Position numbers and translations under genes: made by a program
Source: Hyposmocoma kahamanoa
Lineage: Eukaryota > Arthropoda > Insecta > Lepidoptera > Cosmopterigidae
Direction of reading: 5' to 3'
NCBI RefSeq assembly: GCF_003589595.1
Contig: NW_020653993.1
Span: 6,613,321-6,677,320, forward strand
Length of the DNA stretch: 64,000 bases
Part shown: positions 1,290 to 62,700 of the stretch, one piece after another
Position numbering within the stretch: the first letter of the stretch is position 1
Layout of the letters: every line of letters begins with the position of its first letter
The notes under the pieces: generated by a model
Told to the model about the DNA's origin: nothing
The model's input: the letters and a program-made list of their open reading frames with translations, nothing else
The model's database searches: none

Positions 1290-1473
1290 AGTACGTTTCA
1301 AAAGTTTTAGTTGAATATCATAATTCCAATCTTGTTATTTCTAATGAGGCAATTAAACCAAATATTCTATTAATGTTTGTCACAGTTTTCCAGATTAGCA
1401 GTACAAGCGTTGGTCAATTTAACATTCTTAATGTTTCTGAATTTCATTAGTTAGAACTCCAAGTTCAATAAGG
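1290..1473 (+). promoter_or_regulatory. Promoter of gene A (conserved family promoter module)
   Basis: This region is collinear with the DNA upstream of gene B exon 1 (20805-20986) and gene C exon 1 (17300-17122), while the surrounding DNA is not. Landmarks are TAATGAGGCAATTA (1342-1355), the TATA-like TATTAATG (1368-1375, 99 bp before the ATG), TTTGTCACAGTTTTC just after it, and TTCAATAAGG next to the start codon. The TAAT and ATTA cores resemble homeodomain sites, but no factor can be named. The transcription start is not mapped; about 30 bp past the TATA-like box is the natural guess. Confidence 0.65.
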
Positions 1474-1536
1474 ATGGTTTTATTTTGCATTAATTACTTT
1501 TTAATAAGTTCTATGTCAATATTGGTAACTGTATCA
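1474..1536 (+). CDS. Gene A exon 1: signal peptide
   Basis: These 21 codons start at ATG (1474) and encode a hydrophobic leader beginning Met-Val-Leu-Phe-Cys and ending Leu-Val-Thr-Val-Ser. The donor GTAAGTAAAT follows at 1537. The exon ends in phase 0, which matches the acceptor TTGTTTCAG at 4478-4486, where exon 2 starts with TGT. The same exon shape, length, phase and donor occur in genes B and C, and the upstream DNA is conserved, so this is the true start. The in-frame run immediately before exon 2 begins only with TTG and is intron. The intron is 2950 bp and carries LINE, MITE, SINE and R1 debris. Confidence 0.75.
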
Positions 1537-1734
1537 GTAAGTAAATAAAGTGTTCAGTTATTATTTAAAAAGTTACACCTAAGCTACAAGTTCGCAAAGC
1601 CGTTTTCTCATTTAAAATACATGCAGTAATAAAGATAAGAACAATAATCTTTCAAATGTAATAATAAATTCAATGGAAAATAAAATAAACGACACGAAGA
1701 TCAAGAAATAAATAGAGCTAGCAGCAGAAAACTT

Positions 1735-1815
1735 ACTTGTGAAAGAGTCCGTCCAGGGAAGTACTGCCACCGTCACTATTTCTCCTGTCAAGCAGTAATG
1801 TAAGCATTGCTGCGT
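1735..1815 (-). repeat. R1 repeat fragment
   Basis: This is the reverse complement of the R1 3' half, read as GAAAGAGTCCGTCCAGGGAA, then GTACTGCCACC, CAAGCAGTAATG and GCATTGCTGCGTTC. It lies inside the intron of gene A. Confidence 0.65.
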
Positions 1816-2244
1816 TCTTGTTTAGAGATTTACTACATTATTGCAGAGGACGGGAAGTAAGGGAAAACTGGACGAGTATGAGTTACAAGTTACAAGGCCG
1901 AGCGCCAGGGAGGTCGTGTATTAATACGAGTTCCCGCCGAGGCTTATATAGTGCTTTTCTCAAACAATGTGAAGAAATAATAAAAGACTAAAGAGAGGAA
2001 GATGTAATAGAAAAAGTTAATTAATAACAAAAGTAACATTTAATGAGGACAATTTCGCTAAAAGAAAATGTTATTGTTTTTCCAGGCACATTAATAGAGT
2101 CTGCTGAACTTCTGATAATGTGGTTCGTGTAGTTCTCCAGTGCGTGAAAGTTTCATAAGTTTTCATGTATCTTACTTTGCTCATAGCCTGCAACCACTTT
2201 TTCATGGCTATTATTGTCCCTTGTTTTAAATTAGGCAGAGTACT

Positions 2245-2960
2245 ATCCATTACTGATATTATGATATGTTAATCTCAGGTACCTTTGCGTATGCTGATGA
2301 CAGCACAGTTGTGGATAGGTACTTGACCAATGCGAGGGTCAGTGGAGAGGAAATCCAGTCTTGTCGAGAGTCCATGGTTAGCCGTTTAGATTTGACACTC
2401 CAGGCAGTCTCCGATTGGGGCAATGCCAATCTTGTCAAATGTAACACTACCAAAACTACACAAAATGGAGCCACTTTGCGTTGACTCCGACTTTTCGTGA
2501 TATATCCATACCGATAGCCGACTGTCTCCAGCTACTTGGAATGGACCTGTCGTCCAATTTGAACTTCGGCAGACACATTGAATCCATGGCCAAAAATGCA
2601 GCAAGGATGTTTAGGATCCTTTCCAGGGTGAGGCGTAACTTTACACCGGGACAGTTTCTTCAGCTGTACCAAGCACAAGTCCAGTCGTGCATGGAGTACT
2701 GCTGCCACCTTTGGGATGGCTCTGCTACGTATCAACTTGCCACTTTGGATTCAATTGACAACCGTGCCAAGAAGCTTATAGGTGACTCGGAATTAGTGGA
2801 GGCGAAGCTGTAGAGCCTTGAGCACCGCCGTAAAGTTGCCTGCTTATCGGTATTTTACATGATATATCACGGAGAGTGTGCAATGGAATTACACGATTTA
2901 ATTCCGCCTTTCCCTTTCCATCACCGGGGACCTAGGCGTAGGCTTGGGTTCCACCCCTAT
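2245..2960 (+). pseudogene. Non-LTR retrotransposon reverse transcriptase fragment
   Basis: Two overlapping frames (2266-2484 and 2481-2813) encode the C-terminal part of a LINE reverse transcriptase. The first has the palm motif YADDST and a WGNANLVKCN segment. The second has LQLLGMDLSSNL, then QAQVQSCMEYCCHLWDGSA and an ending like LDSIDNRAKKLIGD. A frameshift near 2480 separates them. A further degraded stretch, GLGFHPYVVDI-like, runs to about 2960. The element is 5'-truncated, sits in the intron of gene A in the same direction, and cannot be active. The same LINE family occurs at 20075-20390 and 63440-63650. Confidence 0.85.
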
Positions 2961-3344
2961 GTTGTGGATATTACAAAGATTACTATATTTTGCCTTATCG
3001 CTCTTCTCTATAGAACTAATTTTCACTACGAATACTAAAACACTTTAGTTTATTTTACCGCCTTTTTCTGTAAAAATACCTACCTTTACTTTTTTACCTT
3101 TTCTTTACTTTTACTTTTAATAATAAGTGGTAAAGGTAGGTATTTTTAATTCTCGCGATTACGAACACTGAGCATTTAGCTATATAAGTTTTTCTTTTGC
3201 CTGTTTAAATAGTTCATTGTTAGTAGATAAATTTAAAAGTCAGAGCAGTGCCAGTGGACTGTAATGGATTTTCATACTTACCTTGCACGTAACAAAGTTT
3301 CCGTAATGCAAACATTTCCGAGCATGTTTGAGAAAAATAAATTA

Positions 3345-3490
3345 AGGGTGCTGGTGAAAATGCAGGCACGTGGTACTTGTCCACATTATGTCTCAGGGTG
3401 ACGGGTGCTGTTGCAGTACCTCTCAGATCTTACAATTTAAACTCCAGGGCACTGAAACTGTTCGCCGCGTGACTTAATAACATTAAAAAA
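3345..3490 (-). repeat. R1 repeat, 5' half
   Basis: This is the reverse complement of R1: GTGCTGGTGAAAATGCAGGC, then TTATGTCTCAGGGTGACGGG and CGTGACTTAATAACATT. It lies inside the gene A intron. Confidence 0.7.
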
Positions 3491-3885
3491 AAATCTCGCT
3501 AAACAGTTCATTAAACAAATTTTGAGATAATGAGTCCGATAACTACACATTATACACGATAGAACACATTCGACAAACATGACATGATGTATCTCCGACA
3601 ACAAAATATCTAAATCGGTTTAGTAATTCACAGTGAGCATGTAATTCAGATGCTTTTGGGGAATAGAGTGAATGAGTATCTAAATGCGATGTTCTGATTT
3701 CTAATATTTCTATATAATTTTTTATTATATAAAATATAAAAATGTGATGTAAACTATATAGTAAACACAAAAATGTTTGTAGCATTTGCATTTAAATTAT
3801 TTAAATTACCCCTTTCAGATACCATATCACTTTAAAATATTGTTTAAGCAAAAGGCCTATAAGTTTCATTTAAAAAAATATAATT

Positions 3886-4190
3886 TTTAACCGACTTCAA
3901 AAAGGAGAAGGTTCTCAATTCGACTGTATTTTTTTAATGTATGTTACGCGATAAATAAGTTAAAATTGTAAACCGATTTTGATGATGCTTCTTTTGTTAG
4001 AAAGAGGGTAACCTCAGTAGTGGTCCCATTTCAATTTGAAGAAAATATTCCACCTTTAAGGGTGACAAGCTAGGGGATGAATACGGTTTCGCGCACTTTC
4101 CGGTAACCGATTTCAATAAAACTTGGTAAATAGATGTGATTCCACGAACTTTTGAGATCGGTTTTTTTAGCAGGTACTCTGATTATGAAC
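3886..4190 (+). repeat. ACCGACTTC-type MITE
   Basis: It starts TTTTAACCGACTTCAAAAAG and ends TTTTGAGATCGGTTTTTTTA. It is shorter inside than the copies at 696 and 5738. It lies in the gene A intron. Confidence 0.8.
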
Positions 4191-4279
4191 ATTAATCTTA
4201 TATGCGTAAATTTTTGATTGTGTCCTGTTTTCGTTAAATTGTTCTAAGTTCAAACTTCAAATAACGCACAAACTCATAG

Positions 4280-4400
4280 GCCCGCACTGGGAAAACTCTG
4301 TTTCGCGGGTGTCATAGACACACATATAAGCAACCACAAATTACACCCAAACTCACGAGAGAAATAAATGTAGACCATACAAATATTTCTCCCGGTCCGG
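4280..4400 (-). repeat. tRNA-derived SINE body (family S2), fragment
   Basis: The reverse complement reads through GAGAAATATTTGTATGGTCT, CTCTCGTGAGTTTGGGTGTA and TGTCTATGACACCCGCGAAA, matching the SINE bodies at 16815, 55990 and 59940. The tRNA head is lost. It ends about 85 bp before exon 2 of gene A. Confidence 0.7.
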
Positions 4401-4486: not shown

Positions 4487-5341
4487 TGTTTAGAAGATCG
4501 CAAAGCATCTACTAATGGTGGAAATAGGCAATATTATCCTAATAGCGAAGAAGACTGCGCCGCTTGTGGCTGCTACTACCCTTATTATCCCAATGATATG
4601 TGTCGAGTCATAGAAAAGTGTACGAAAGCCTGCGAAGCAGTTTACGACATATTGTGCATAGATCCCAGAATTCAGAAAGCTATTAAATGTTGGTTTTCAA
4701 AAACATGTCAATCCGACTGTTACAGCACGTTTATGTATACTCTTAAGGCTAAAACACTCAGTTATGTAATTAATAACAACAACAGGAGCGGTCCCGGTAG
4801 CATTAATAATGATAACAACATTGGGGGCGGTAGATACATAAATAATGATAATAACATTGGCGGTGGGAGAAACATTAATAATAACAACAACGTTGATGGT
4901 GGGACGATCGTTAACAATAACAACAATGGCGGTGATACGAGCTTTGGTTATGCCAACAACATTGGCGGTGGGAGTATCAATAATAACAACAACAACGACG
5001 GGAGCAACTATAATAATAATTACAACTATGGCGGTGGGGGTAACAATAATAACAACAACAACAATGGCGGTGGGGGTATCAATATTAATAACAACAACAA
5101 TGGTGGTTGGAGCAACTATAATAACAACAACAACGGCGGTAGGGGTGACCATAATATTAATTATAACGTTGGCGGTGTAGGTGCAAATAATGACAACAAC
5201 AATGGCGGTAGAGATAAATATAATTATAACCACAAATTTAAGGGTGGGGGTAACTATAATAGACACCAACACGGTGGCGGTTGGCAAAGTTACAAAAACA
5301 AGCGGTTTACGAAAAAATCTAGGAATCATAAAAAAAAATAA
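4487..5341 (+). CDS. Gene A exon 2: Cys-rich module plus Asn/Gly repeats
   Basis: This exon encodes 284 residues and a stop; with exon 1 the protein is 305 aa. The first codon is Cys22. A module with 11 Cys spans residues 22-99; its core is C60-x5-C66-x3-C70-x7-C78-x10-C89-x5-C95-x3-C99. Residues from about 116 to 280 are Asn runs (mixed AAT and AAC) broken by Gly-Gly-Gly, Ile and Tyr. The tail is basic (RFTKKSRNHKKK). The stop overlaps a polyadenylation signal AATAAA (5337-5342). Gene B is the closest paralogue in protein sequence. I do not recognise the domain. A secreted, largely disordered extracellular protein is inferred from the signal peptide, disulfide-rich head and repeats. Confidence 0.8.
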   Translation, partial: CLEDRKASTNGGNRQYYPNSEEDCAACGCYYPYYPNDMCRVIEKCTKACEAVYDILCIDPRIQKAIKCWFSKTCQSDCYSTFMYTLKAKTLSYVINNNNRSGPGSINNDNNIGGGRYINNDNNIGGGRNINNNNNVDGGTIVNNNNNGGDTSFGYANNIGGGSINNNNNNDGSNYNNNYNYGGGGNNNNNNNNGGGGININNNNNGGWSNYNNNNNGGRGDHNINYNVGGVGANNDNNNGGRDKYNYNHKFKGGGNYNRHQHGGGWQSYKNKRFTKKSRNHKKK

Positions 5342-8434: not shown

Positions 8435-8545
8435 GTAATTGCTTCGGCAGTACATAATATACTAAAATTTACACGATACAGAGAAGATTAGCATAGCCCC
8501 TGCGCAAGATTGACAAATAAAATCGTGAAGCGGTCAACATTTTTC
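8435..8545 (+). pseudogene. U6 spliceosomal snRNA pseudogene
   Basis: Nearly the whole U6 RNA is recognisable: TTGCTTCGGCAGTACATA at the 5' stem, GATACAGAGAAGATTAGCAT (ACAGAGA box and AGC triad), CCCCTGCGCAAG, and AAATCGTGAAGCG, ending in CAACATTTTT. There are several differences from the conserved animal U6, including a two-base insertion after ACATA and changes in the internal stem-loop. It continues directly into a LINE reverse-transcriptase tail in the same orientation, so it is most likely a retrocopy made by template switching. A functional U6 gene would need an upstream PSE/TATA, which I do not see. Confidence 0.85.
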
Positions 8546-14603: not shown

Positions 14604-15896
14604 TTAAAAGATGCAGTTATAATAGTCATCAGTATTGTATAACACATATTTTGACCTCGTTTTCTGTCTAAGCTTATTAATATTGTTATCAGGACCGCCA
14701 CCGTTATTATTATTGTTATTATTTTTACGTCTACTACCATTATTGTTGTTGTTGTTGTTATTATTATAACCTCCACCGCCATTATTGTTGTTGTTATTGT
14801 TATTATTACCTCCAACACCATTATTATTATTGTTGTTATTATTATGTCCTCTACCGCCATTATTGTACTTATTACTATAACCTTTACCGCCATTATTATT
14901 ATAACCTCCATCACCAATATTGTTGTTGTTATTATTATTGTTTCCGCCATCACCGTTATTGTTGTTGTTATTATTATTGTTTCCTCCACCACCATTATTG
15001 TTGTTGTTGTTGTTATTATTATAACCTCGGTCGCCATTATTGTTATTGTTGTTATTATTATTACCTCTACCGCCATTATTGTTGTTGTTATTATTGTTAT
15101 TTCCTCTACCGCCATTATTGTTGTTGTTATTATTGTTGTTTCCTCTACCGCCATTGTTGTTGTTGTTATTATTGTTGTTTCCTCTACCGCTATTATTGTT
15201 GTTGTTGTTGTTGTTGTTGTTGTTACCTCGTCCGCCATTATTGTTATTATTATTGTTGTTACCTCGTCCGCCATTATTGTTATTATTATTGTTGTTACCT
15301 CGTCCGCCATTATTGTTGTTATTATTGTTGTTACCTCGTCCGCCATTGTTATTGTTGTTATTATTATTATTATTATAGTAACCACCGCCATTATCAACAT
15401 ACTCATAATAATAGTCATTTCCAATGTCATAATCGTTGAAGTAGTAATTATTGTAATTCCAACCTCGATTGCGGTTGTGTTTATTCTTATTACATGGGTT
15501 GCCGCAATCCATCTTGCACGAATAATAGTTAATTTTGTTATTATAATACTTAATTTTAGGTTTATGCCTTCTAAGTTGATTGTAAGTGTAATTATTGTTA
15601 CCTCTAATGCCCTTTTTATTGCTAATAATATTGTGACCCTTGCCGATTATGTTGTTATTAATATAGTTACCCTTACCGTCCATGTTGTTGTTGTTATTAT
15701 AACTAATACCCAGACCGCCAATGTTGTTGTTATTATTAGTGGAAAACCCACCGCCAATGTTGTTGTTGTTATTAGTGGTAACTCCACCGCCAATGTTGTT
15801 TTTATTATTAGTGGTAACTGCACCATCAATATTATGATTATTTTTAATGTTTCCTCCACCGCCAATTTTGTGTTTCTTATTACTGTTACCCCCACA
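14604..15896 (-). CDS. Gene C Asn/Gly repeat exon (alternative acceptor model)
   Basis: The minus-strand frame is open from 15908 to the stop at 14604. A good acceptor, TTTCTTACAG, ends at 15897, and the next codon is TGT, just as in genes A, B and D. Joined to exon 1 (17121-17059, phase 0) it would give an intact protein of about 451 aa: signal peptide, Cys, about ten Gly-Gly-Gly/Asn blocks, a middle segment with CKMDCGNPC and Tyr-rich sequence, then some 20 blocks of NNNNNNNNNGGRG type, ending in DYYNCIF. Asn codons mix AAT and AAC throughout. This model skips the ruined Cys module at 15897-16110. Without RNA data I cannot say whether it is made. Confidence 0.6.
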   Translation of the reverse strand, partial: CGGNSNKKHKIGGGGNIKNNHNIDGAVTTNNKNNIGGGVTTNNNNNIGGGFSTNNNNNIGGLGISYNNNNNMDGKGNYINNNIIGKGHNIISNKKGIRGNNNYTYNQLRRHKPKIKYYNNKINYYSCKMDCGNPCNKNKHNRNRGWNYNNYYFNDYDIGNDYYYEYVDNGGGYYNNNNNNNNNNGGRGNNNNNNNNGGRGNNNNNNNNGGRGNNNNNNNNGGRGNNNNNNNNNNNSGRGNNNNNNNNNGGRGNNNNNNNNNGGRGNNNNNNNNNGGRGNNNNNNNNNGDRGYNNNNNNNNNGGGGNNNNNNNNNGDGGNNNNNNNNIGDGGYNNNGGKGYSNKYNNGGRGHNNNNNNNNGVGGNNNNNNNNNGGGGYNNNNNNNNNGSRRKNNNNNNNGGGPDNNINKLRQKTRSKYVLYNTDDYYNCIF

Positions 15897-16110
15897 CTGT
15901 AAGAAATGTTATTGTATGATTGTGAGAATCAGCGCATTTGACAACGACACACACGATGTCATAAACTGCTTTGCAGGTTTTCATGCATTTTACTGGGACT
16001 TTACATATATAGAATACAAGGGTAATTACAATAAGACAAGCAGTCTTCTTCGCTGTTATGATAATCCAACGATAAACCGTTTTTTATGACTTTTTGTCGT
16101 TTTCTATACA
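15897..16110 (-). pseudogene. Gene C: degenerate Cys-rich module
   Basis: The ancestral exon start is at 16110 (acceptor TTATTAG, then TGTATAGAAAACGAC, aligned with Cys-Leu-Glu-Lys-Asp of gene B). A TAA follows at codon 9, and a one-base deletion relative to gene B precedes the segment NSEEDCLSYCNYPC. Another frame carries FYICKVPVKCMKTCKAVYDI VC, matching the C-x5-C-x3-C-x7-C core of genes A and B, and a further shift separates this from the Asn/Gly frame. So the module needs at least three repairs and cannot be translated as one exon. Assembly error is possible but would have to hit several sites within 200 bp. Confidence 0.75.
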
Positions 16111-17058: not shown

Positions 17059-17121
17059 CGATGCCGTTATAAGTATTGAAATAGAACTTATTAAAAAGAG
17101 ATTCATCCAAAATAAACCCAT
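17059..17121 (-). CDS. Gene C exon 1: signal peptide
   Basis: The 21 codons from ATG (17121) begin Met-Gly-Leu-Phe-Trp and end Leu-Ile-Thr-Ala-Ser. A GTAAGTAAAA donor follows at 17058, phase 0. Length, phase, donor and hydrophobic profile equal those of genes A and B. The exon is intact although the next Cys-rich module is broken, which suggests the gene is still under some constraint or decayed only recently. Confidence 0.7.
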
Positions 17122-17300
17122 CCTTATTGAACTTGGTGTTACAACTAATGAAATTCAGAAACGTTAAGAATGTTAAATTAAACAACGCTTGTACTGCTAA
17201 TCTGGAAAACTGTGACAACCATTAATACGACATTTGGTTTAATTGCCTCATTAGAAATAACAAGACTGAGTTTATTACCTATATTCAGATACGTTATTAA
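17122..17300 (-). promoter_or_regulatory. Promoter of gene C (conserved family promoter module)
   Basis: On the minus strand: TAATGAGGCAATTA (17253-17240), TATTAATG (17227-17220, 99 bp before the ATG), GTTGTCACAGTTTTCC, then GATTAGCAGTACAAGCGTTG. It is very close to the gene A promoter and less close to that of B, fitting a more recent common origin of A and C. Confidence 0.65.
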
Positions 17301-20804: not shown

Positions 20805-20986
20805 ACGTTAATCATGTAATTGAATATCTTAACTCCAGTCTTGTTCTTTCTAATGAGGCAATTAGTCCACAGTGTTGTATATATGTTTGTCACAGTTTTC
20901 TAGATTAGCCGGACAAGAGTTGTTTAATTTAACAATCTTAATATTTTCGAATTTTTTTAGTTATTACAATTTTACGTCAAACAGTG
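20805..20986 (+). promoter_or_regulatory. Promoter of gene B (conserved family promoter module)
   Basis: TAATGAGGCAATTA at 20851-20864, TATATATG at 20878-20885 (102 bp before the ATG), then TTTGTCACAGTTTTC. Collinear with the promoters of A and C but more diverged. Confidence 0.65.
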
Positions 20987-21049
20987 ATGGATTTATTTTG
21001 GTTTTATTTATTTTTAATAATTAAAATAGCAATAATGATACCAGTGTCT
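20987..21049 (+). CDS. Gene B exon 1: signal peptide
   Basis: The 21 codons from ATG (20987) start Met-Asp-Leu-Phe-Trp and end Met-Ile-Pro-Val-Ser. A GTAAGTAAAT donor follows at 21050, phase 0. The exon joins the TGT at 22395 across an intron of 1345 bp. The open frame directly upstream of exon 2 begins with TTG inside an R1 repeat and is not coding. Confidence 0.75.
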
Positions 21050-23354: not shown

Positions 23355-23642
23355 ATACAGTGAATAGCGACATCTCTCGCCAGGTCTGGTAACGGTAAAG
23401 GTACTAACTGGGTGATAAATCTGCAATAGATTTCTCATAGATGGCGCTACGACTAAAAAGTCGTTAAAAGACCAAGTACAAAGACACGACGCAAGCACAT
23501 AGAAAAATTCGTGAGGTCCGTTGGTTCGTTCCGTAGCTTAGTTGGTATAGCGTCTGGCACGGTATGCAAGAAGACGACGATTCGAATCCGACCGGATCGA
23601 AGGATTTTTTTCTGAGTGTTCGATCTTTGTATTAATAATTAT
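23355..23642 (+). repeat. tRNA-derived SINE S1, best copy
   Basis: It starts GCGACATCTCTCGCCAGG and contains AGATGGCGCTACGAC. The tRNA-like part is CCGTAGCTTAGTTGGTATAG (A box) and GACGATTCGAATCCGACC (B box). The tail is GTGTTCGATCTTTGTATTAA. Fragments lie at 384, 7478, 7670 and 37500. Confidence 0.85.
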
Positions 23643-35088: not shown

Positions 35089-37278
35089 TTATGCCATTAG
35101 TTTCGAAATAAATTTACCAACATTATTGTAATTCGTATTTCGCACCAATTTACTAACATCTTTGATTCGCTTAAAACTTTGAGAAACGAGTTTTGTTTTG
35201 TCGTTATTATAGTCGTCATAACTATCATAATTGTCATTGTAGTGGCAGTCCCAATTTCCTCTTTTACGTGAACATCGTTTTATATTTATAGGATTTAAAT
35301 TAGAATTCTTTCTAAAATCGACGTTGTCTGAATTTGTATATTTATGTGACAACGTATTATTATTGTAATTATTACCATAATTATTACCATAATTATTACC
35401 ATAATTATTACCATTATTTACTTTTCCATGGTTTAAATTATTTTCAATCTTGCTTTCGTTGTGTTTTTTATTAACAAATTTCAAACTATTTTTGTAATTA
35501 TTGTTCGATCGGAATGACCTGTCCCTAAGACGAAGTTTAGCGCCAAAGTTATTATTATTTTGTAAGTAAATAGAATTTTGTGAAAATGCATTATTATGGT
35601 TTGTAATTTTTGTGTCATCTTTTGTGTTCAAATTATTTTGAATGTTGCCATTTTGTACATCAATTTCAATACCGTTTCGCTGTTGAAGATAATTGTTCAT
35701 GTTGTCATTATGATTGTTGTTGTAATTATTAAAATTTTCCGTTAAGCTCCGTCTCATTGCAATGTTAACATCGCCATTCTTAATAGAATTAACGTGTATT
35801 TGTTTTGAATTATCGTTACTAGTATCTTGACTAGAATTTGTTTGTGCATTTTTTGAATTAAGAAACTCATTATTTGTACCATTATTTACATTGTATTCAT
35901 CAATATTTTTCAAAAAACTCATTCTTTGTTTCCTGTTTTTAGATTTTTTTTTGTTTTTACCTTTCCTAACATGCTTTATTTTCTTACGAATTTTCACATT
36001 ATTATTATTAATAATACTTTGTCCGGCATTCGCATTGTTATCATTGTTTACATAAATGCCGGAGCCATGGTTGTAGTTATTATTCACAAAACGTCCGTTT
36101 CCTCGGTTGTTATTATTATTTACAGTACGACTTTTACCATAATTGTTGTTATTGTTTATTGTTATAGAACCGCCTTGACCTCTATTTTTACTCAATAATT
36201 TAAAATTGTTGTTATTAGTAATAATACTACTCCCATAACCTTTATTCATTAATTTAAAATTGTTATTGTTAGTAATAACACTACCGCCAAATCCCATTTG
36301 GTTATTGTTGTTAGTTACAATTTTCACCTTACCGTTATGGTTATTATTATTCGTAATTGTAAGAACTTGCCGTCCGTTTCCCATTTGATTATTCTTGTAA
36401 TTAAGTTTTGTATTCCCAAAAATATAACGGTTGTTATTATTGTTGCGCGAATTAACTCTATATCCATTGTAATTGTTATTGTTAGTAATTGTTGTTACTA
36501 ATGCTTCAGGTCTATAATCATTATTATTACCATGATAATTTAGTTTGGTATTGCCACGATAATTATCTTTGGTGCCATAATTAACTTTGTTGACATAATT
36601 ACCTAAATTACCATTATTGCCTTTAATACCGTAACTCAGAATTGAAGGTTTATTAATGCCAGTGAATCCTATGTCGTTATTATTATTGATAGTTTCATAG
36701 GAGTCATAATCGAATGTATTTCCAAAGTTGTTGTTATTAGTTATGCCTCCATTTACATCTACATAGCTATAACTATACCCATTATTATTCTTAATAAATA
36801 CATTATTATTATTATTGTTATTGTTATAAATACTTCGTTTTGCTGAAGGGACGTTTAAGGCTTTTAGATCATTTACGTTGCTACTTCCTTTAATCTCAGA
36901 TAGTTTTGAATTTACGTTGTCGCGTATATAAGCACGATTTTTTTTACTATGTCTTCTTTTTTTTTTAGATCTTAAGTCCTTTCTATCTTGAATCAAATTA
37001 TAGATATCTATTTCGTTGTAATTATCTGATGATCTGAATGAAGGAATATTTTTAATTAATTGGTCATCACAAATTTGTTTGCAGTCACGTATATAAGTGC
37101 ACCGTGGGACTTTGCAGTTGAAATCTAGACATAAAGTATCGTATATTGATTTGCAGTCATTTGTACACAGATGAAATTTTTGACACAGGGCATCGTCGAT
37201 TTTCCCTTCGCAGTCGTATAGATTCTCACTGAAATCTTCATGAGATGAACTCTTCGCTTCGTCCAGATCTTCTGTGCA
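35089..37278 (-). CDS. Gene D exon 2: Cys-rich module plus long Asn-rich region
   Basis: This exon encodes 729 residues and a stop; with exon 1 the protein is 752 aa, the largest of the family. The acceptor is ATTATCTTCAG and the first codon is TGC (Cys-Thr-Glu-Asp). The module has the core C-x5-C-x3-C-x7-C, then C-x5-C-x3-C, with one extra Cys, and the motif CTNDCKSIYDTLC matches CTKACEAVYDILC of A and B. The rest is rich in Asn with little Gly: ITNNNNFK-type and NNNNYG blocks, a basic segment in the middle (RKGKNKKKSKNRKQR), four NNYG repeats, and a Cys-containing C-terminal part (CSRKRGNWDCHYND). The in-frame residues before Cys are intron read-through. A secreted, mostly disordered protein is inferred. 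Confidence 0.8.
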   Translation of the reverse strand, partial: CTEDLDEAKSSSHEDFSENLYDCEGKIDDALCQKFHLCTNDCKSIYDTLCLDFNCKVPRCTYIRDCKQICDDQLIKNIPSFRSSDNYNEIDIYNLIQDRKDLRSKKKRRHSKKNRAYIRDNVNSKLSEIKGSSNVNDLKALNVPSAKRSIYNNNNNNNNVFIKNNNGYSYSYVDVNGGITNNNNFGNTFDYDSYETINNNNDIGFTGINKPSILSYGIKGNNGNLGNYVNKVNYGTKDNYRGNTKLNYHGNNNDYRPEALVTTITNNNNYNGYRVNSRNNNNNRYIFGNTKLNYKNNQMGNGRQVLTITNNNNHNGKVKIVTNNNNQMGFGGSVITNNNNFKLMNKGYGSSIITNNNNFKLLSKNRGQGGSITINNNNNYGKSRTVNNNNNRGNGRFVNNNYNHGSGIYVNNDNNANAGQSIINNNNVKIRKKIKHVRKGKNKKKSKNRKQRMSFLKNIDEYNVNNGTNNEFLNSKNAQTNSSQDTSNDNSKQIHVNSIKNGDVNIAMRRSLTENFNNYNNNHNDNMNNYLQQRNGIEIDVQNGNIQNNLNTKDDTKITNHNNAFSQNSIYLQNNNNFGAKLRLRDRSFRSNNNYKNSLKFVNKKHNESKIENNLNHGKVNNGNNYGNNYGNNYGNNYNNNTLSHKYTNSDNVDFRKNSNLNPINIKRCSRKRGNWDCHYNDNYDSYDDYNNDKTKLVSQSFKRIKDVSKLVRNTNYNNVGKFISKLMA

Positions 37279-40651: not shown

Positions 40652-40720
40652 CAAACTCACTACGAGAATCGGTATCCAACCCAATACAATGAGATTAAGA
40701 AAAATATTATCCATATTCAT
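40652..40720 (-). CDS. Gene D exon 1: signal peptide
   Basis: The 23 codons from ATG (40720; a second in-frame ATG is at 40714) encode MNMDNIFLNLIVLGWIPILV plus three residues, a typical hydrophobic leader. The donor GTAAGTTTTC follows at 40651, phase 0, and fits the phase-0 exon at 37278. The intron is 3373 bp and holds R1, LINE, foldback and SINE pieces. The upstream DNA contains the family promoter motif, which supports this exon. Confidence 0.65.
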
Positions 40721-40870
40721 TACACATGTAGGAATAAATTTCAGTACAAAGTACTACTACTACCGTAGCTTATTAAACGTAGGTAGAATACATATAATTC
40801 AATAATTGAATATGTTGAAAGCGTTGTTTATGTGAGAACAACATATAAATACTAATTGCCTTATTATAAG
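40721..40870 (-). promoter_or_regulatory. Promoter of gene D (diverged family promoter module)
   Basis: On the minus strand: TAATAAGGCAATTA (40866-40853), then TATTTATATG (40851-40842), then TTGTTCTCACATAAAC. The order is as in A, B and C, but the spacer between the first two elements is about 11 bp shorter and the flanks are not alignable by eye. Confidence 0.5.
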
Positions 40871-44829: not shown

Positions 44830-44998
44830 TCGAAATCATGTAAATGGAGCTCTGTATGCCTTTATGGGTAGCCAAAACGTGTCAAGAAAGTGCGGATTCC
44901 AACCCTGATGTACGGTAGCGAGTATTGGGTATGACAGAAGAAGCATGAAATTAGGGTAAATGCTATTAGTATAAGAGCTTTGAGTAGTATGTACAGGC
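44830..44998 (+). pseudogene. RTE-type LINE fragment
   Basis: The plus strand reads LMYGSEYWV, a stop, then QKKHEIRVNAISIRALSSM in one frame. This matches the segment after the RT domain of RTE-clade elements (LYGSETW...EMRALR). Short and degraded. Confidence 0.6.
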
Positions 44999-44999
44999 T

Positions 45000-47655
45000 G
45001 TAATATGTGGAGACAGGTAGTAATATGTGGAGATTTCAATGTAAACCTGTTGGAAAACTGTTCTACTTCTGTAAGACTCATTAATTTATTTCAAAGTTTT
45101 AACTTGATTAATCTTTTTTTAGAACCAACTCGCATTACTGCCTCCTCTTCTACTTGTATTGATAACATCTTTTGTAACACAGACGCAGTGTCTAAATCAA
45201 TAATAAATTGCTTAAGATCCGACCATAGTGGCCAATTGGCTTCTTTTAATTATAAAATGAGCAAGAAGGCAGACCAATTTCTCTGCAGACCGATTACCAC
45301 AGAACGAATAATTAGATTTCAAAATAATATCGGCAATAGTTTAAATTCCCTATCCCACATACCGGAGGATCCAAATACTTTATATAACACGACATTTGGT
45401 TTAATTAAAAATGAATTTGACAATATATTTAAATCGAAAACATTAACTTTCCATAGAGAGACTAAATTCAACGACTGGGCAACAGTAGGTATTCATAAGA
45501 GTAGGTCTCGTTTGTATGAGCTATATGCTATGAAAACTTATAATAATAATTCCAATTTCATGGAATATGTTAGAATTTATTCGAAAATATTTAAAAAAGT
45601 TTGTGTAGCTGCTAAGGTTAAGTTTCACAGCGACAAAATTAGACAATCGATAAATAAATCTAAAACTACTTGGAGCATAATAAATATAGAGTCAGGCAGG
45701 GTTAAACCAAAGGATAGAGATATAGTTTTAGAATTAGACAGCAAACTTATAAAATGTAAAGATAAAGTAGCCCAAGCTTTTGAATCGTTCTTTTCGGAAA
45801 TTGCTGTGAACACTACAAAATCATTAAATTCCTCCCCTTCACTTGCTATTGATCTCTTAAAGGAAAATGTTAACGTTTGTGGCAGTTTATTTAATTTTCG
45901 TCATGTTAATCCACAAGACATCATAAAAGCTTTTAAGTCAATACATGTTAAAAAAACTGAAGATCTCTGGGGCATATCAACTAAAGTTATAGACTCAGTT
46001 ATTAATCTCATTTCCCCACATTTAGCTGTAGCTTTCAATAGGTGCGTTGACGAAGGTGTTTTTCCCGATTTAATGAAATACAGCAAGGTTATTCCCTTAT
46101 TCAAAAGCGGTGGGAAAGTTGATCCTAGCAACTATAGGCCCATTTCAATTTTACCAGCTTTAAGTAAAATATTCGAAAAGGTTATGCTAACTCAATTACT
46201 GTCCTATTTCGGTAGGAATCATATTTTTCATAGTGAACAATACGGGTTTACTAGTGGTAGATCGACTAGCGATGCGGGGGTAGCGTTACTAAAACACATC
46301 TTTGATGCTGGGAAAGGTCCCAGAACGCTATTGGTGTTTTCTGTGACCTCTCAAAGGCATTTGATTGCGTTGATCATAATACTCTTATTAGGAAGCTGGA
46401 ACATTACGGTGTAAATGGCAAGGCGTCGAAACTTGTCTCGTCATATCTCAACGGTAGAATTCAGAAAGTAGACATAAATGGAGTGACTTCTTTGGGTTCT
46501 CCAGTAAAAATGGGTGTTCCGCAGGGCTCAATACTTGGACCTTTCTTATTTCTGATTTATATTAATGATCTGCCATTCTTTGTTAAGGACCATTGCGAAA
46601 TAGTGTTGTTTGCTGATGACACATCCTTGATTTTTAAAACAGACAGACATGACAATAACTATGACCGTATTAATGATACCCTCTCTAAGGTAGTTTATTG
46701 GTTTAATGCTAACAATTTATTGCTTAATGCCAAGAAGACAAAATGTGTTAAATTTGAATTACCTAACGTAAAATCGACTAGTCCAACCATAGAAATAAAC
46801 GGAGAAAAGTTAGACCTTGTTAATAAAGCAGTCTTCTTGGGAGTGACCTTAGATAGTAAACTTCAGTGGTTTCCACATATATCGTGCCTGGCCAGCAGAT
46901 TAAGCTCCGCTGCATACGCAGTCCGCAGAATACGTGAGCTTACCGATGTTAGTACTGCTAGACTAGTTTACTTTAGTTACTTCCATAGTATAATGTCCTA
47001 CGGGATTCTCATGTGGGGTAAAGCGGCGGATATTCAAACCATATTTGTATTGCAAAAACGAGCGATTCGTTCTGTGTACCGTCTAGGCTCTCGGGTATCT
47101 CTCAGAGAAAAGTTTAAGGAGACTGGTATCATGACTGTGGCATCACAGTACATTTACTCAAATATTTTATATGCCCGTAAAAATATACATAATTTCAATA
47201 AGAAAGAAGATATCCATAATATTAACCTTAGAGCTAAGTCCAAACTCATGGTACCACGATTTCGTTTAACCAAGGTAAACAACTCTTTTATGGGGAACTG
47301 TATACGTTTTTACAATAAGATTCCGGAGCATATATTAAGTTTATCATTTCCTAAGTTTAGAAACTACATTAAAAATATTTTGATCGAAAAATCATATTAC
47401 AAAATTGAAGACTACGTGTTAGATAAAGACGTATGGAAAGACGACATGGCTCCAGAATCCACACAAATTTGATTCAAAGTGTATTCCATAGCATTTAAGT
47501 TTATTTGAAAAGAGCAATCCCTAGAGTTTCTTGCTCGTTCTTCTCAGGGAGGTCAGCGTAGTGAACGAGCAGTAGCTTAAATGTGACGTTTTCAAGTGTA
47601 AATTTATTTTACCTATGGAATAAATAATCTTTGACTTTGACTTTGACTTTGGCTC
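45000..47655 (+). mobile_element. Non-LTR retrotransposon, 5'-truncated, one frameshift
   Basis: The first frame (45005-46414) holds the C-terminal end of an apurinic-type endonuclease (CGDFNVNLL, later LRSDHSG), a linker, and the start of the RT (VIPLFKSGGKVDPSNYRPIS). A one-base deletion near 46330 moves the reading to the second frame, which continues KAFDCVDH, GVPQGSILGPFLFLIYINDL, FADDTSLIF (46609 onwards) and the C-terminal region to the stop at 47472. The 3' end has an AATAAA and then TTTGACTTTGACTTTGAC, a short tandem repeat typical of some Jockey/CR1-group LINEs. The endonuclease start and any ORF1 are missing. Recent but inactive. Confidence 0.9.
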
Positions 47656-52197: not shown

Positions 52198-53314
52198 AGT
52201 ACATAGATATCGTTGAGCCTAATCCTTTTTATTTTTTAAATTTGTATGGAGGCCATAGTGCCAGTTATAATCATATATACATACTGTTATTGTGTAGTCA
52301 GAGCACAACACTCTGTTGCTTATTAATCTATGATTTATGATTTTATTTTAACACGCGTCATTACATGCTTGCAAAACGAGATGGATAGTGTGATTTTTTT
52401 ATACCATTTCGCGATTATCAAATATTATAATGCACACATTAATCAAAAACCACAGTGTTACTTACTAAATCAATGTGAATAATTAAAAACCTCAAATTTA
52501 TGTTCACATAGTTAATCAATCCTGACAACCGACTAAATGATGTGCAGCGTCTTCACCGCACATCATTGAAACACAGCGCGTGTATGGAACGACGCATCTA
52601 GTACTCTAGTTAAATTCAAATTCAATATTCAAATTCAAAATAATCTTAATTTCATAGGTAAGCATTATTACACTTGAAATCGTCACAATATTAAACTCTA
52701 CCGCTCATTCGTAAGGCAGATTCCCCTGAGAAGAATGAGCAAGAAACTCTAGGGGTTGCTCTTTGTAAATAACATTTACAATTTTTTTTTTTTATTATTT
52801 GAAACATCAGAGATCGAGACTACCTCCATGAGCTAAACGGGTTACTACCACGGATTTTTGTCATCCAAGTACGCAGAAGTTGTATAATAACCTTTAGTAT
52901 AAAGTTTTTGTTTCACTATAGTTTTAAACCTCGTGTAAGGCAAATTTTGTATATCAACCGGAATCTTGTTATAGAAGCGTATACATTGCCCCTTAAATGA
53001 TTTTTTGACTTTGTGAAGACGACTATCAAGAAAAGCTAGTTTATTTCTATTCCTCGTATTAATGTTATGTCTGTCACTATTTTTCATAAATAAATTACTA
53101 TTCCTTTTAACATAAATTACATTCTCATAAATGTACTGTGAGGCTAGTGTAAGAATGTTAATTTCCTTAAACTTATCTCTCAAAGATACTTTGGGGCCCA
53201 GATTGTAAATTGCCCTAACTGCACGTTTCTGCAGGACAAAGATTCTGTTGATATCGGCGGCATTACCCCAAAGCAAAATGCCGTATGTCACCAGTTAGTA
53301 CATAGATATCGTTG
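52198..53314 (-). mobile_element. LINE 3' end with 18-bp flanking repeats
   Basis: The minus-strand frame 53291-52845 encodes YGILLWGNAADINRIFVLQK, RAVRAIYNLGPKVSLRDKF and GQCIRFYNKIPVDIQNL, the C-terminal part of the same LINE family as 45000-47655. The coding match starts at about 53294. AGTACATAGATATCGTTG occurs at 53297-53314 and again at 52198-52215. The family 3' end (AAATTCAAATTCAA repeats) is at about 52612, so some 395 bp between it and the left repeat are extra; they end in AAATAAAAAGG on the minus strand. Confidence 0.7.
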
Positions 53315-57194: not shown

Positions 57195-57287
57195 CTGTTT
57201 GGTAATATTTTCCGCCACCATCGCATCTCCAATTTTGTATCTTGGATTGTAGAGGGAAAGTACACTCGCAACAAAACTCACATTCGG
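57195..57287 (-). CDS. Gene E putative exon 2
   Basis: It lies between an acceptor ATACATTTCAG and a donor CAG/GTAAAC, is 93 bp, and is open in the phase set by exon 1 and exon 3. It encodes PNVSFVASVLSLYNPRYKIG followed by DAMVAENITKQ, with no Cys. There is no counterpart in A to D. An open shifted frame with several Cys also exists but breaks the phase. Confidence is limited without transcripts. Confidence 0.4.
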
Positions 57288-57759: not shown

Positions 57760-58720
57760 ACTACGGGCTTCCCGGTAAGACCCGGGTACGGCGGGCTTCT
57801 CTGATGGACCCGGACTTGGGTATGGACTCGCTGGGGTTATATATATCGTCGCTTTGATTACGGGAGAGAGTTCCACAATCTGATCGCAGAAACGGTAAAA
57901 GAGTTAGAATAAAAGTTAGAGGTATGATCAGAGGAGCGAAGGGGACGGCAAAGTGTAGAAAAGTGGCAAGTAAAGCGATCTTTAAGATAAGAAGGCGTAA
58001 AGGAACAGAATAGAATCGAGTAAAAAAGGGAAAGGATATAAAGATCTCTACGCCGGTGGATGGGCAGCCATTTAAGTTGTACGCGAAATTGAGAGACATG
58101 ATAAAATTTACGAAGTCCGAAGATATACCTAACGCACATATTTTGGAGCCGTTCCAATTTATTGAGCACAGTAACTAACAAATTCAAATAGCAAACATCT
58201 GCATAGTCGAGTTTCGGATGGAGAAGGCTCTGGGCCAGAATAATTTTAAATTTAGTCGGAAAAAAGTTTTTAAGCCTTCTCAGAGAAAAATGCGCGCCAA
58301 ACACCTTCTTGCTAACCTCAGCAGCGCGCGGCTTCCAAGTCAGGCATTTATCATAAATTACCCCCAAATTCCTGACTGTGTCCAAATCAAGAATATCGAC
58401 ACCACCGAAAACCACAGCGGGAAAGAAGTCTAGATTTTTAGACTGAACTAAATGCTACCTATAATAATGGATTGTGTTTTGGATGGGTTAACTTAAAGGC
58501 CAAAAGACTGACTCCATTGACGAATGGATTCAAGGTTCACATTGGTAATATTAATGGCACATGGTACGTCTTGAATGGACGACTGGGTGTAAAACTGGAT
58601 GTCATCAGCTTACAGATGATAGGAAGTAGTGAGGGATTGTGTGATAGAGTTAATAAACAAAGGAAGTAAGAGAGGGGAAAGGAGGCCACTCTGCGGAACT
58701 CCGGCGGCAATATCATACCA
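57760..58720 (-). pseudogene. LINE reverse transcriptase 3' fragment
   Basis: The minus strand carries ADDIQFYTQSSIQDVPCAIN, LESIRQWSQSFGLKVNPSK, then VFGGVDILDLDTVRNLGVIY, HPKLDYADVCYLNLL and VSAIRLWNSLP. This is the RT palm end, thumb and C-terminal tail of a Jockey/CR1-group LINE. A frameshift near 58440 and missing ends make it inactive. It is related to 33780-34545. Confidence 0.8.
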
Positions 58721-59560: not shown

Positions 59561-59629
59561 GCTCTTTGGCTATAACACAAATAATTTATATTATGAAACC
59601 TAAAATATTGCCATAAATAGTAAAATATG

Positions 59630-59866
59630 TCGCACCCCTCATGAAAGAATGGCATAAGTGAAGTTACGTCAAACATATTTATTGCTCCATTAGACACAGA
59701 AAGATATAACCCACATCCTCTCCAATTCTTGTAACTCTATCTACAATATTAGTCGATAAAGTTACAAGATTTGGAGATGATGTAGATTATATTTTTCTGT
59801 ATCTAATGATCCAATAAATGTTTTTCACGTAACTCCACTTATGCCATTCTATAATAAGGGGTGCGA
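59630..59866. repeat. Long palindromic MITE
   Basis: Two arms of about 112 bp, well matched throughout: TCGCACCCCTCATGAAAGAA, TGGCATAAGTGAAGTTACGT and CTTGTAACTCTATC on the left, and the complement on the right ending GGGGTGCGA. The arms meet almost without spacer. Confidence 0.9.
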
Positions 59867-59937
59867 TGAATTGAATAATTAAAACTTCTACCCACACAGA
59901 TTTCAAAAATGTATTAGCAGCTTTTCAAAGGCATTGA

Positions 59938-60165
59938 ATTGCCTACGACCGATCTATCTCACAGACCATGCTGGTCTACCACGCAAAGGGTCCCGGGTTT
60001 GATTCCCGGGCCAGGGGAAATATTTGTATGGCCTACATTTATTTCTCTAGTGAGTTTAGGTGTAATTTGTGGTGTTCTATGTGTGTATCCATGGCACCCG
60101 CGACTAAGTGTTTACATAGTGCGGGGCTATGAGTATGTGCGTTATTTATTTATTATTTGTTATAG
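59938..60165 (+). repeat. SINE S2 with intact B box
   Basis: The head has GGGTTTGATTCCCGGGCC (B box) and the body is CCTACATTTATTTCTCTAGT, GAGTTTAGGTGTAATTTGTG and GGCACCCGCGACTAAGTG. The A-box region is altered. Confidence 0.8.
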
Positions 60166-60184
60166 AAGCGCTACATAACTACAG

Positions 60185-60680
60185 TTTTAATAATCTCAGT
60201 ACAGAGTACTAAAAAAACCGACCTCAAAAGTACGTAGAATCACATCTATTTGCCAAGTTTTATTGAAATCGGTTACCGGAAAGTGCGCAAACGCGGATTC
60301 ATCCCGTCGTTCGCCACTATACGGAACTTGATACAGGAGATAATTAAAATCGGTTCTCACTACTCAAAGTATATTGAGAGAAAAACGCCTTGAATTGGAG
60401 AATAGCAAAGTCAACCATTAAAATAATTACTCCTTATAATAAAATTTAGGCTCTATTTATAGAAATGAATCTTCATGCGTGAACAGCCACCCTTGGAGGT
60501 GAATTATTTTCTTTAAAATTAAACGGGACCACTATGAAGGTACCCTCTTTCCAACAAAAAAAAAGAATCATCAAAATCGGTTCACAAATGGCGAAGTTAT
60601 CGCGTAACATACATACATAAAAAAGACATACAGTCGAATTAAGCACCTTCTCCTTTTTTTGAAGTCGGTTAAAAATAAAG
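60185..60680 (-). repeat. ACCGACTTC-type MITE, reverse copy
   Basis: It starts ATAATCTCAGTACAGAGTAC and AAAAAAACCGACCTCAAAAG and ends CCTTCTCCTTTTTTTGAAGT, CGGTTAAAA. Both inverted ends are present. Confidence 0.85.
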
Positions 60681-60714
60681 TACTATCAATAAATTACTAC
60701 CGTTCGATTAGAAC

Positions 60715-60890
60715 TCGGGCTGTAATGGTGGAAGGCGTATTATCTGATATTAGAAAAATAGCTAAAGGTGTTCCTCCAGGATCAGTAATAGAACCTTTCT
60801 TACTCCTATAACGCTTTGCCACATTACTATAAGGTTATACGTAAATCTCTTTGTAGATGATACTCATATAGGGTTATCAGCCACATGTGA
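60715..60890 (+). pseudogene. LINE reverse transcriptase remnant
   Basis: One frame reads VEGVLSDIRKIAKGVPPGSV, IEPFLLL and then a stop, matching the GVPQGSVLGPxLFL block of RTs. A decayed FVDDT-like phrase (TTTGTAGATGATACT) follows in another frame. Confidence 0.6.
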
Positions 60891-61349
60891 AGTACATATG
60901 CTAAAACGACAAAAGATTATAGTTACTTCTAAAACATAATCATTAATACAATAAAAATCGTACCCACATAACACTAAACAAAGTTGCGAAAAGAAGAATG
61001 ACACTAAATCTTTATTTCATTCCATATTTATTCAAAATGAAATTATTATCAACAGACAATATTCTAATGGATGTGTATTATGCTCATATCTAATTTGAAC
61101 TAAACCTAAGTTTATTTTGTGCCATCAATATTCTTATTTTTTTCTACAGCTCCTAATGTAAGGCTTTAGTGAAAAATACATTTCTCTTATTTGTCTTCTC
61201 TGCCTAATTTGTGTTCATATTCTACTCATGATTTATGGGCTATGAATACGCCATCTACCCATGTCATAGTCTCTTTATTTACTTATTACGTTGTCTTCCT
61301 ACTTGTCTTCTTCTTAATCTATTTCTCTTCAATTTTATCTTCGTCTTTA

Positions 61350-61560
61350 CCTTCTTCGTGATATTCTTCTTGTTCGTTCTCTTTTTTTATAATCTACTTT
61401 ATCTTCGTTTTTGCCTTCTACTTTATCTTCGTCGTTATCTTCTTCTTTACCTTCGTCTTTATCTTTTTCTTTATTTTCATCTTTGTCATCTTCGTTGTTG
61501 TATTCGTTGTCCTCTAAATTGTATTTTTATTTGCCCTCTTCATTGTCTTCCTCTTTATGC
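61350..61560 (-). other. Acidic and Lys-rich coding-like run downstream of gene F
   Basis: The minus strand encodes KYNLEDNEYNNEDDKDENKE, then KDKDEGKEEDNDEDKVEGKN and EDKVDYKKRERTRR before a stop. A TAA precedes it, and before that comes EHKEEDNEEGK. It is purine-rich simple sequence (GAA/GAT/AAA) and may be a lost C-terminal tail of gene F or a chance product of the repeat. Confidence 0.3.
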
Positions 61561-61612
61561 TCTTGCTTTTTGATCTTATTTTATTCTAATAATGGACTTT
61601 AATTTGCGCCAG

Positions 61613-62700
61613 TTATATTTCATCATTGTCTTTTTCAACTCGAAACCTGAGCTTTCGTTTATGCCATTTAACTATTTGATTTTCAACTTTTTTGTGATCT
61701 TCTTTATTGTTTTCTTCTTCTTCTGCCCTAAACCTGAGTATTTGACGTTTCCACCATCTATCTTCTGCGTACTCTTTTAATTTTGCCCTGGGGATTAGAG
61801 TAGGTAGAGCTGTAGTTATCCTTTTAAAAAAATCCTTATCATTAGGCTTATGAAAACTAATACTGCATCTAGCTTCACATAAGCTCATATACTTGTCGTA
61901 ACTTTCTGGGGTACATTTTGTGACTTCAGAACAAATGTTTCTAAAAAATGCATAACACGTAGTTTTACAACGTTTGTAGCCTAAGTATTTACAGAACCTG
62001 CCATAGCGGTTGGCATAAAACACATTTCGGTTTTTGGCATAAAACTCATGTCTGTTTCTAGTTCTCGTAGAAGTTGTGTCATAAATATATATATATGTGT
62101 TTTTCCGATGTCGATGCCTTCTAGCGTCCACGATTGTTTGTTGTATTTCTGGTTCTATTGTATTTTTATCCAGGAATAAATTTGATTTCATACCTTTTTT
62201 ATAGTTTGGATAACTTTCAACGTACATTGGTTCGGTTATTTTAAGATTGGTTATTGGGGACATTTTTGTTTCAATCTCTGGAAAATAATAATAATCTGAG
62301 GACTTATTAAAACGTGTTTGTTCTATCGTTTCAATATTGGTTGTCTGGGACATTTCTGTTTCAAGTTCTGGAAAATGATAATAATCTACGTCATTATTAA
62401 CATGCATTCGTTGTGTAGTTGTAATATTGGTTATCTGTGATAATTTTATTTCAGGTTCTGGATAAAAATAATAATAACTTGAAGAATTCTTAACAAGCAT
62501 TCGTTGTGTTGGTTTAATGTTGGCTGTCTGGGACATTTCTGTTGCAATTTCTGGATAATGATAGTAATCCGAAGAATTATTAAAATTTATTCCTTCTGTT
62601 ACTTTAACATTGGTTACTTGTGAAACCTTTGTGTCAGGTTCTGCATAATAATAGTAACCTGACGAATAATTAATATGCATTTGTTCCGTTATTTTAATAT
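61613..62700 (-). CDS. Gene F last exon: Tyr/Asn repeats then Cys-rich module
   Basis: The acceptor TATATATTTCAG ends at 62701. The exon enters with two bases of a split codon and then reads IKITEQMHINYSSGYYYYAE. Five tandem repeats of about 30 residues follow (pattern IKxTQRMxVNNSSDYYYFPE then xETEMSQTTN) plus a partial sixth. Next come a basic segment (RRHRHRKN) and the module C-x7-C-x3-C-x7-C-x5-C-x11-C-x3-C with RCKTTCYAFFRNIC as core. The end is charged (RAEEEENNKEDHKK). AATAAA lies at 61585-61580, 28 bp after the stop. The domain order is the reverse of A to D. Exon 1 and the leader were not found between 62701 and 64000, so the 5' end is missing. Confidence 0.7.

What the first reader, a model, noticed from the sequence alone, without database searches (positions are those of the whole stretch)
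1290..62700. Six-member cluster of unrecognised secreted Cys-rich proteins with Asn/Gly or Tyr/Asn repeats
Seen: genes A, B, C, D, E and F all have (or had) the core C-x3-C-x7-C ... C-x3-C. A, B, C and D have a separate signal-peptide exon joined in phase 0 to an exon starting with Cys. The array type differs: Asn/Gly in A, B and C, Asn-rich in D, Tyr/Asn 30-mers in F, none in E. Known: such domain plans occur in silk, glue and seminal-fluid proteins, but this module is not one I can name. Inference: an expanding family of extracellular structural or adhesive proteins whose disordered arrays evolve fast while the disulfide head is kept.
Basis: partly seen in the sequence, partly recalled or inferred. 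Interest (0 to 1): 0.9.

Follow-up and report, generated by a model that had tools for sequence, protein, structure and literature searches.

The report
Case-moth silk-like head-and-tail gene cluster
A Hawaiian case-building moth carries one 238-kb cluster of about twenty related gene copies, some of them broken, whose predicted secreted proteins mostly share one cysteine-rich head but carry very different repetitive arms, and which are likely parts of the larva's silk or case glue.

Summary
The window is Hyposmocoma kahamanoa, an aquatic silk-case moth: NCBI model P0001 is gene C, and the contig lengths agree. The six genes are one end of a cluster of 20 head loci (17 open, 3 broken) in 238 kb; six whole-genome queries found no convincing copy elsewhere. 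Nine A-like heads show dN/dS 0.04-0.40. Seven relatives on unnamed contigs keep the core cysteines that they cover. Arms differ: Asn/Gly, Cys/Pro with poly-Pro, Gly/Lys with poly-Gly, acidic, Tyr/Asn. Pfam and PDB searches named no relative. AlphaFold predicts a two-helix hairpin of moderate confidence. The element TAATNAGGCAATTA precedes members of three subfamilies and contains CAATTA, a silk-gland factor-2 site of Bombyx fibroin genes. Best reading: a sericin-like silk-coat or case-glue family. The family is firm; the function is inferred, without expression data. F is the weakest member (leave-one-out E = 0.033).

The parts
1342..1355 (+). Shared promoter element TAATGAGGCAATTA of gene A (132 bp before ATG)
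1474..1536 (+). Gene A predicted signal-peptide exon (21 aa), GTAAGT donor, phase 0
4487..5341 (+). Gene A exon 2: Cys head (4487-4768), Asn/Gly array, basic C-terminus
17240..17253 (-). Shared promoter element of gene B (132 bp before ATG)
17059..17121 (-). Gene B signal-peptide exon
15905..16060 (-). Gene B broken Cys head (in-frame stop and frame shift); ends approximate
14604..15896 (-). Gene B open Asn/Gly array, starting with Cys behind an alternative AG acceptor; 47% Asn; predicted only
20851..20864 (+). Shared promoter element of gene C (136 bp before ATG)
20987..21049 (+). Gene C signal-peptide exon; junction identical to the NCBI model P0001
22395..23204 (+). Gene C exon 2: Cys head, Asn/Tyr/Gly array, basic C-terminus (the NCBI model ends differently)
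40853..40866 (-). Shared promoter element TAATAAGGCAATTA of gene D (146 bp before ATG)
40652..40720 (-). Gene D predicted signal-peptide exon (23 aa)
35089..37278 (-). Gene D exon 2: Cys head, Asn-rich array, conserved C-terminal Cys pair; relatives P0003, P0004
57366..57416 (-). Gene E candidate signal-peptide exon
57195..57287 (-). Gene E candidate middle exon
   Evidence: three-exon plan as in P0005
55336..55689 (-). Gene E Cys exon, no array
61613..62700 (-). Gene F exon: Tyr/Asn 30-residue repeats (62240-62700) first, then Cys core (about 61850-62010); weak family member, no signal exon found
1..80 (-). Edge of a possible further Asn-Gly array ((CAACGG)n read on the - strand), cut by the 22.4-kb assembly gap left of the window

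Best explanation
The six genes belong to a 238-kb cluster of about twenty copies, some broken, that encode predicted secreted proteins with one conserved cysteine head and, in most, very different low-complexity arms, and they likely form a silk-gland family that coats or glues the larva's silk and case. Shown here: homology of the heads (weak for F), purifying selection on the A-like heads, the clustering, the diversity of arms and a shared promoter element. The arm follows the head in A, C, D, g6461 and g6518, precedes it in F and g6437, and is missing in the E type. Predicted: the exon plan, secretion, and a head that folds as a two-helix hairpin with C-x3-C on each helix, which disulfides would staple. 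Inferred mechanism: signal peptide and rigid head let very different disordered arms be secreted from one cell type; a free thiol in members with an odd number of Cys (11 of 18 predicted proteins, no more than chance would give) could link chains; the arms (Asn/Gly, Cys/Pro with poly-Pro, poly-Gly, acidic, Tyr/Asn) would set hydration and stickiness. New arm chemistries would arise by tandem duplication of a head-bearing gene and repeat expansion. Some copies have lost the head (B, g6506, g6476).
For: Single cluster: in six queries of the 728-Mb genome every match below E = 0.1 lies on contig C768 between 6,437,018 and 6,675,415 (one search reported only E up to 0.001). Head dN/dS 0.04-0.40 in all 36 pairs of 9 A-like heads, pooled pN 0.062 and pS 0.269. 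Six Cys columns are invariant in 13 rows. The C junction in P0001 and the signal exon and three-exon plan of P0005 agree with the exons found by script. Promoter: the 12 copies of AATNAGGCAAT found in 264 kb, both strands, all lie 93-145 bp before a family signal exon and in its orientation; 4 in the window against 0.23 expected. CAATTA occurs on either strand in 13 of 16 upstream regions of 250 bp against 20.8% of background windows; counted by my six subfamilies 5 of 6, P = 0.0019. CAATTA is in the SGF-2 elements listed for Bombyx fibH and fibL and in a presumed one of fhx (PMC5831788 Table 2, section 14 read). The predicted proteins without signal are hydrophilic (GRAVY -0.45 to -2.06, 18 proteins); Yponomeuta Ser4 is 28.9% Asn with GRAVY -2.13 (PMC9684489, passages). 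Sericin genes also form duplicating clusters (PMC9745057, section 20). The larva builds a silk-and-sand case and holds on with silk under water (PMC11373647, passages).
Against: No expression or proteome data; silk-gland expression is inferred from a short AT-rich motif that was compared with known sites only after the element had been seen. The A-like promoters are alike by recent duplication. g6437 lacks CAATTA, o6502 and g6563 have variants, and E and g6484 carry it only on the other strand and lack the long element. NCBI's models of g6541, g6580 and g6437 (P0002, P0011, P0008) start without a signal peptide. Serine does not lead in the array members, and most members are basic while Yponomeuta Ser4 is acidic. 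No silk paper passage that I saw names such a head. Model confidence is modest (mean pLDDT 56.2 and 51.6). The requests for fibroin genes and for genome-wide copies of the element did not complete.
Confidence: 0.5

Rival explanations
1. Silk-borne or haemolymph defence proteins: the Cys head is an antimicrobial or protease-inhibiting module (like Kazal inhibitors or plant alpha-hairpinins) and the arms are carriers.
Against: No Kazal family among the Pfam matches of 9 members at E up to 10. Both models are all-helical. An arm of about 590 residues (D) is hard to explain for an inhibitor.
Confidence: 0.15
2. Reproductive structural proteins: egg glue, eggshell or spermatophore proteins made in accessory glands or follicle.
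For: A signal exon plus one large exon, Gly-rich and Cys/Gly arms and lineage-specific clusters are known for chorion (recalled).
Against: No Pfam match to a chorion model in the six window exons (E up to 1) or in g6461 and g6518 (E up to 0.1). The one divergent pair that I measured, B and C, has its signal exons 3.9 kb apart. The promoter element fits silk-gland sites.
Confidence: 0.15
3. Cuticle, peritrophic or other epidermal matrix proteins.
For: Gly-rich, Tyr-rich and Asn-rich low-complexity secreted proteins occur in cuticle (recalled).
Against: No chitin-binding or cuticle family among the Pfam matches.
Confidence: 0.1
4. Non-functional, repeat-driven relics: slippage arrays whose reading frames stay open by chance.
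For: Three of 20 heads are broken; B's array is open though its head is dead; arrays are simple-sequence DNA; in A, C and D third codon positions show no clear excess of differences between repeats.
Against: Head dN/dS well below 1; D is kept open over about 660 residues in two unnamed contigs at 66 and 65% identity. In the B array third codon positions differ about twice as often as first and second (0.417 against 0.239 and 0.211).
Confidence: 0.05

Closest known systems
Lepidopteran sericins (Ser1 to Ser4, P150; Galleria and Ephestia sericin clusters)
   Same: Predicted secreted, hydrophilic, repetitive, large repeat exon, fast divergence, tandem clusters (PMC9745057, PMC9684489; passages and one section); Yponomeuta Ser4 is Asn-rich (28.9%).
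   Different: A head of 7 to 11 Cys instead of the C-terminal CXCX/CVCY motif of Ser1; Asn or Gly, not Ser, leads in the array members; most members basic; silk-gland expression untested.
Plant alpha-hairpinins / vicilin-buried peptides (walnut Jug r 2 fragment 9q1l_F)
   Same: Two predicted helices with C-x3-C ... C-x3-C; structural overlay 2.1 A over 39 residues.
   Different: 23-25 residues between the Cys pairs, extra Cys, insect origin, no sequence relation shown; that 9q1l_F is a hairpinin and the hairpinin spacing are recalled.
Kazal-type inhibitors (insect silk SPI, SPI-1 of 3qtl)
   Same: Spacing C-x5-C-x3-C-x7-C-x9/10-C-x5-C and a YDxxC stretch.
   Different: E = 1.6 only; no CGxDGxTY motif (motif recalled); predicted all-helical; no Pfam match.
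Lepidopteran chorion genes
   Same: Clustered, signal exon plus main exon, Cys/Gly-rich arms (recalled).
   Different: No Pfam chorion match; other head; the one divergent pair measured (B and C) is 3.9 kb apart.

Membership tests
Sericin (silk coat) proteins | Secretion signal | tested here: met
   By composition only (hydrophobic first exons before A, B, C, D, E and others) and by the exon join in P0001 and P0005. No signal-peptide predictor was run; three NCBI models (P0002, P0008, P0011) lack it; none found for F.
Sericin (silk coat) proteins | Hydrophilic repetitive protein in one large exon, gene cluster | tested here: met
   not for the E type, which has no array
Sericin (silk coat) proteins | Serine-rich | tested here: not met
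   Asn or Gly lead in A, B, C, D; Ser is 6-7% in A, C, D; in E Ser leads at 10%
Sericin (silk coat) proteins | C-terminal CXCX motif of Ser1 | tested here: not met
   Absent from the C-termini of A to F (read from the sequences)
Sericin (silk coat) proteins | Silk-gland expression and presence in silk | not testable with these tools
   No RNA-seq or proteome; indirect promoter evidence only
Kazal inhibitors | Profile match | tested here: not met
   No Kazal family in 9 members at E up to 10; PDB profile E = 1.6
Kazal inhibitors | Small beta sheet plus one helix | tested here: inconclusive
   Models all-helical, but core pLDDT only about 57-85
Alpha-hairpinins | Helix-loop-helix stapled by two C-x3-C motifs | tested here: inconclusive
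Chorion | Chorion central domain | tested here: not met
   No Pfam chorion match
Head family described here | C-x3-C-x7-C ... C-x3-C head with profile support | tested here: met
   Six Cys invariant in 13 rows; leave-one-out E for E, D, g6437, g6484, g6530 from 4.3e-4 to 1.4e-9; F only 0.033

The most novel reading that the evidence does not exclude
An unnamed silk-protein family works as a head-and-arm kit: one disulfide-stapled helical hairpin head, driven by one silk-gland promoter element, carries Asn/Gly, Cys/Pro plus poly-Pro, Gly/Lys plus poly-Gly, acidic or Tyr/Asn arms, so that a case-making moth that lives in and out of water can swap the chemistry of its silk additives by gene duplication alone.
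Probability: 0.35. Interest if true: 0.75.

Novelty: new variant of a known kind. Interest (0 to 1): 0.6.

Why it matters
Silk coat proteins diverge so fast that they are rarely found by homology. Here a conserved head and a promoter element give handles for finding a whole cluster, and 20 sibling loci show how a low-complexity arm of one chemistry gives way to another beside the same head. If the proteins are silk additives, Hyposmocoma offers a natural series of underwater-capable glue and coat chemistries on one scaffold.

Tried and rejected

Papers: PMC11373647 abstract, outline and passages; PMC9745057 passages and section 20; PMC9684489 passages; PMC5831788 passages and section 14; PMC12661448 passages (one, a reference, nothing relevant). 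Others only as search listings.
Full report
What the window is. A protein search with gene A's head returned two proteins (E up to 1; 7 candidates passed the word and length filters of a 5.8-billion database), both from Hyposmocoma kahamanoa. The window is G000:C768:6613321-6677320, and C768 has the same length (11,822,153) as the contig of P0001. Larvae of this moth make silk-and-sand cases and hold on with silk under water (PMC11373647, passages).

Check of the six genes. A, C and D have a 21-23-residue hydrophobic first exon, a GTAAGT donor, a CAG acceptor and phase 0, and their second exon starts with Cys. B keeps its signal exon but its head has an in-frame stop and a frame shift. A second AG acceptor just before its array would again give a Cys start, so B is either dead or a head-less Asn/Gly protein. 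E fits a three-exon plan, the plan of NCBI's model for a paralog (P0005). F has about five 90-bp Tyr/Asn repeats before its Cys core, but no convincing signal exon was found.

The cluster is larger than the window. Searching the 728-Mb genome with the heads of A, D, E, F, g6518 and g6530, and scanning a 264-kb stretch plus further loci, gives 20 head loci on C768 between 6,437,018 and 6,675,415. Names give the genome position in kb. Open heads (17): g6437, g6461, g6484, g6518, g6530, g6541, g6548 (its exon start is lost in a gap), g6552, g6563, g6573, g6580, g6588, A, C, D, E, F. Broken heads (3): g6476, g6506, B. A scan for signal exons adds three that have no known head (o6502, o6583, o6587). 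Outside C768 the searches gave 0 of 10 matches for A (limit E 0.001), 0 of 3 for E, 5 of 6 for F (all E at least 1.6), 1 of 15 for g6518 (E 0.14, with a stop), 1 of 4 for g6530 (E 8.6, with two stops) and 0 of 4 for D (limit E 10 for these five). Only the best candidates are scored, and gaps of 22.4 kb, 5.0 kb, 1 kb and twice 0.4 kb lie in the cluster, so 20 is a lower bound.

Are the heads homologous? E's only other genome hits, though weak (E 0.018 and 0.078), were two loci inside this same cluster. Leave-one-out profiles over 4,283 ORFs recover g6437 at 1.4e-9, g6530 at 9.1e-8, E at 2.7e-5, g6484 at 3.5e-5 and D at 4.3e-4. F comes only at 0.033, against 0.057 for the next unrelated ORF; in that run the B relic has 6.8e-6. 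F rests on spacing and position.

Selection. For nine A-like heads (71 codons, B left out as broken) all 36 pairs have dN/dS from 0.04 to 0.40; pooled pN is 0.062 and pS 0.269. dS runs from 0.05 to 0.66, so duplications are of different ages.

Orthologs. The other two protein searches found D relatives P0003 and P0004, 66 and 65% identical over the alignment, and relatives of g6530 (P0006, 95%), g6484 (P0007, 95%; P0009, 58%) and g6437 (P0010, 57%; P0012, 50%) on short contigs of unnamed origin. Several begin inside what would be intron in H. kahamanoa, so these contigs look genomic, not transcripts. The six core Cys are invariant in the 13 rows of A6. P0009 lacks one further, non-core Cys. 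In D the 39-residue Cys core is 82 and 74% identical, the array 68% in both, the C-terminal part 59 and 56%, and the C-terminal Cys pair is kept. No A-like relative turned up outside H. kahamanoa, but both searches have length limits and multicopy genes may be missing from short contigs.

Arms. Beside Asn/Gly (A, C, B) and Asn-rich (D), g6518 has a Cys/Pro array, poly-Pro and poly-Asn; g6461 has Gly/Lys and poly-Gly (47% Gly); g6437 is acidic (pI 4.5), mostly before the head; short A-like genes carry poly-Asn with Lys runs or end in a CLLFICG-like motif; E, g6484 and g6530 have no array. GRAVY is -0.45 to -2.06 in the 18 predicted proteins (signal exons left out).

Promoter. Upstream regions of 16 signal exons were compared. 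TAATNAGGCAATTA occurs 11 times and the shorter AATNAGGCAAT 12 times on both strands of 264 kb; all 12 lie 93-145 bp before a family ATG and in its orientation, in the A-like, g6518-like and D subfamilies (two of the 12 belong to orphan signal exons and two to broken copies). In the window it occurs four times, once each for A, B, C and D, against 0.23 expected. Its CAATTA is in the SGF-2 (Arrowhead) elements listed for Bombyx fibH and fibL, presumed in fhx, and Ser1 has TAATGC-AATTAATATC for the Antennapedia complex (PMC5831788, section 14). CAATTA on either strand is in 13 of 16 upstream regions against 20.8% of background windows. By my six subfamilies it is 5 of 6 (missing in g6437; other strand in E and g6484), P = 0.0019. 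The comparison was made after the element had been seen.

Reading. Firm: a real, duplicating family of predicted secreted proteins whose A-like heads are under selection, unnamed in Pfam and PDB. Likely, not shown: silk gland. Inferred: the head as secretion and cross-linking module, the arms as hydration and adhesion chemistry. It works like sericins (predicted secreted, hydrophilic, repetitive, clustered) but is not filed as one, since Ser-richness and the C-terminal CXCX motif were tested and not met.

Noticed in passing
1-80 (-): (CCGTTG)n at the window edge reads as Asn-Gly codons on the - strand beside a 22.4-kb gap (C768:6590873-6613320): perhaps another array gene in the gap.
   Followed up: partly
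14604-15908 (-): B's 430-codon Asn/Gly frame stays open although its head is broken; third codon positions vary about twice as much as first and second between its repeats.
   Followed up: partly
C768:6505131-6505796 (-), in L012: A 222-codon open Gly/Trp-rich frame lies next to the broken head g6506: a second case of an open array with a dead head.
   Followed up: no
61300-61560 (-): Past F's stop codon the DNA reads as an acidic Lys/Glu/Asp repeat broken by stops, perhaps a lost arm of F.
   Followed up: no
8435-8544 (+): U6 snRNA-like sequence (82.9 bits).
   Followed up: no
23527-23600 (+): tRNA-like match, 36.4 bits, just after gene C.
   Followed up: no
44984-47472 (+), 52845-53294 (-), 57858-58454 (-): Broken frames that look like non-LTR retrotransposon reverse transcriptase, between D, E and F (by eye; no family search run on them).
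   Followed up: no
P0002 and P0011: NCBI models of g6541 and g6580 start with a similar non-signal stretch (MNQLRV.TQDLD) before the head: an alternative first exon or a shared mis-annotation.
   Followed up: no
g6541, g6548, g6563, g6588 C-termini: A hydrophobic C-terminal motif (CFLFICG, CLLFICW, CLLFVCG, CLLFICG) recurs at the end of four short A-like proteins; role unknown.
   Followed up: no
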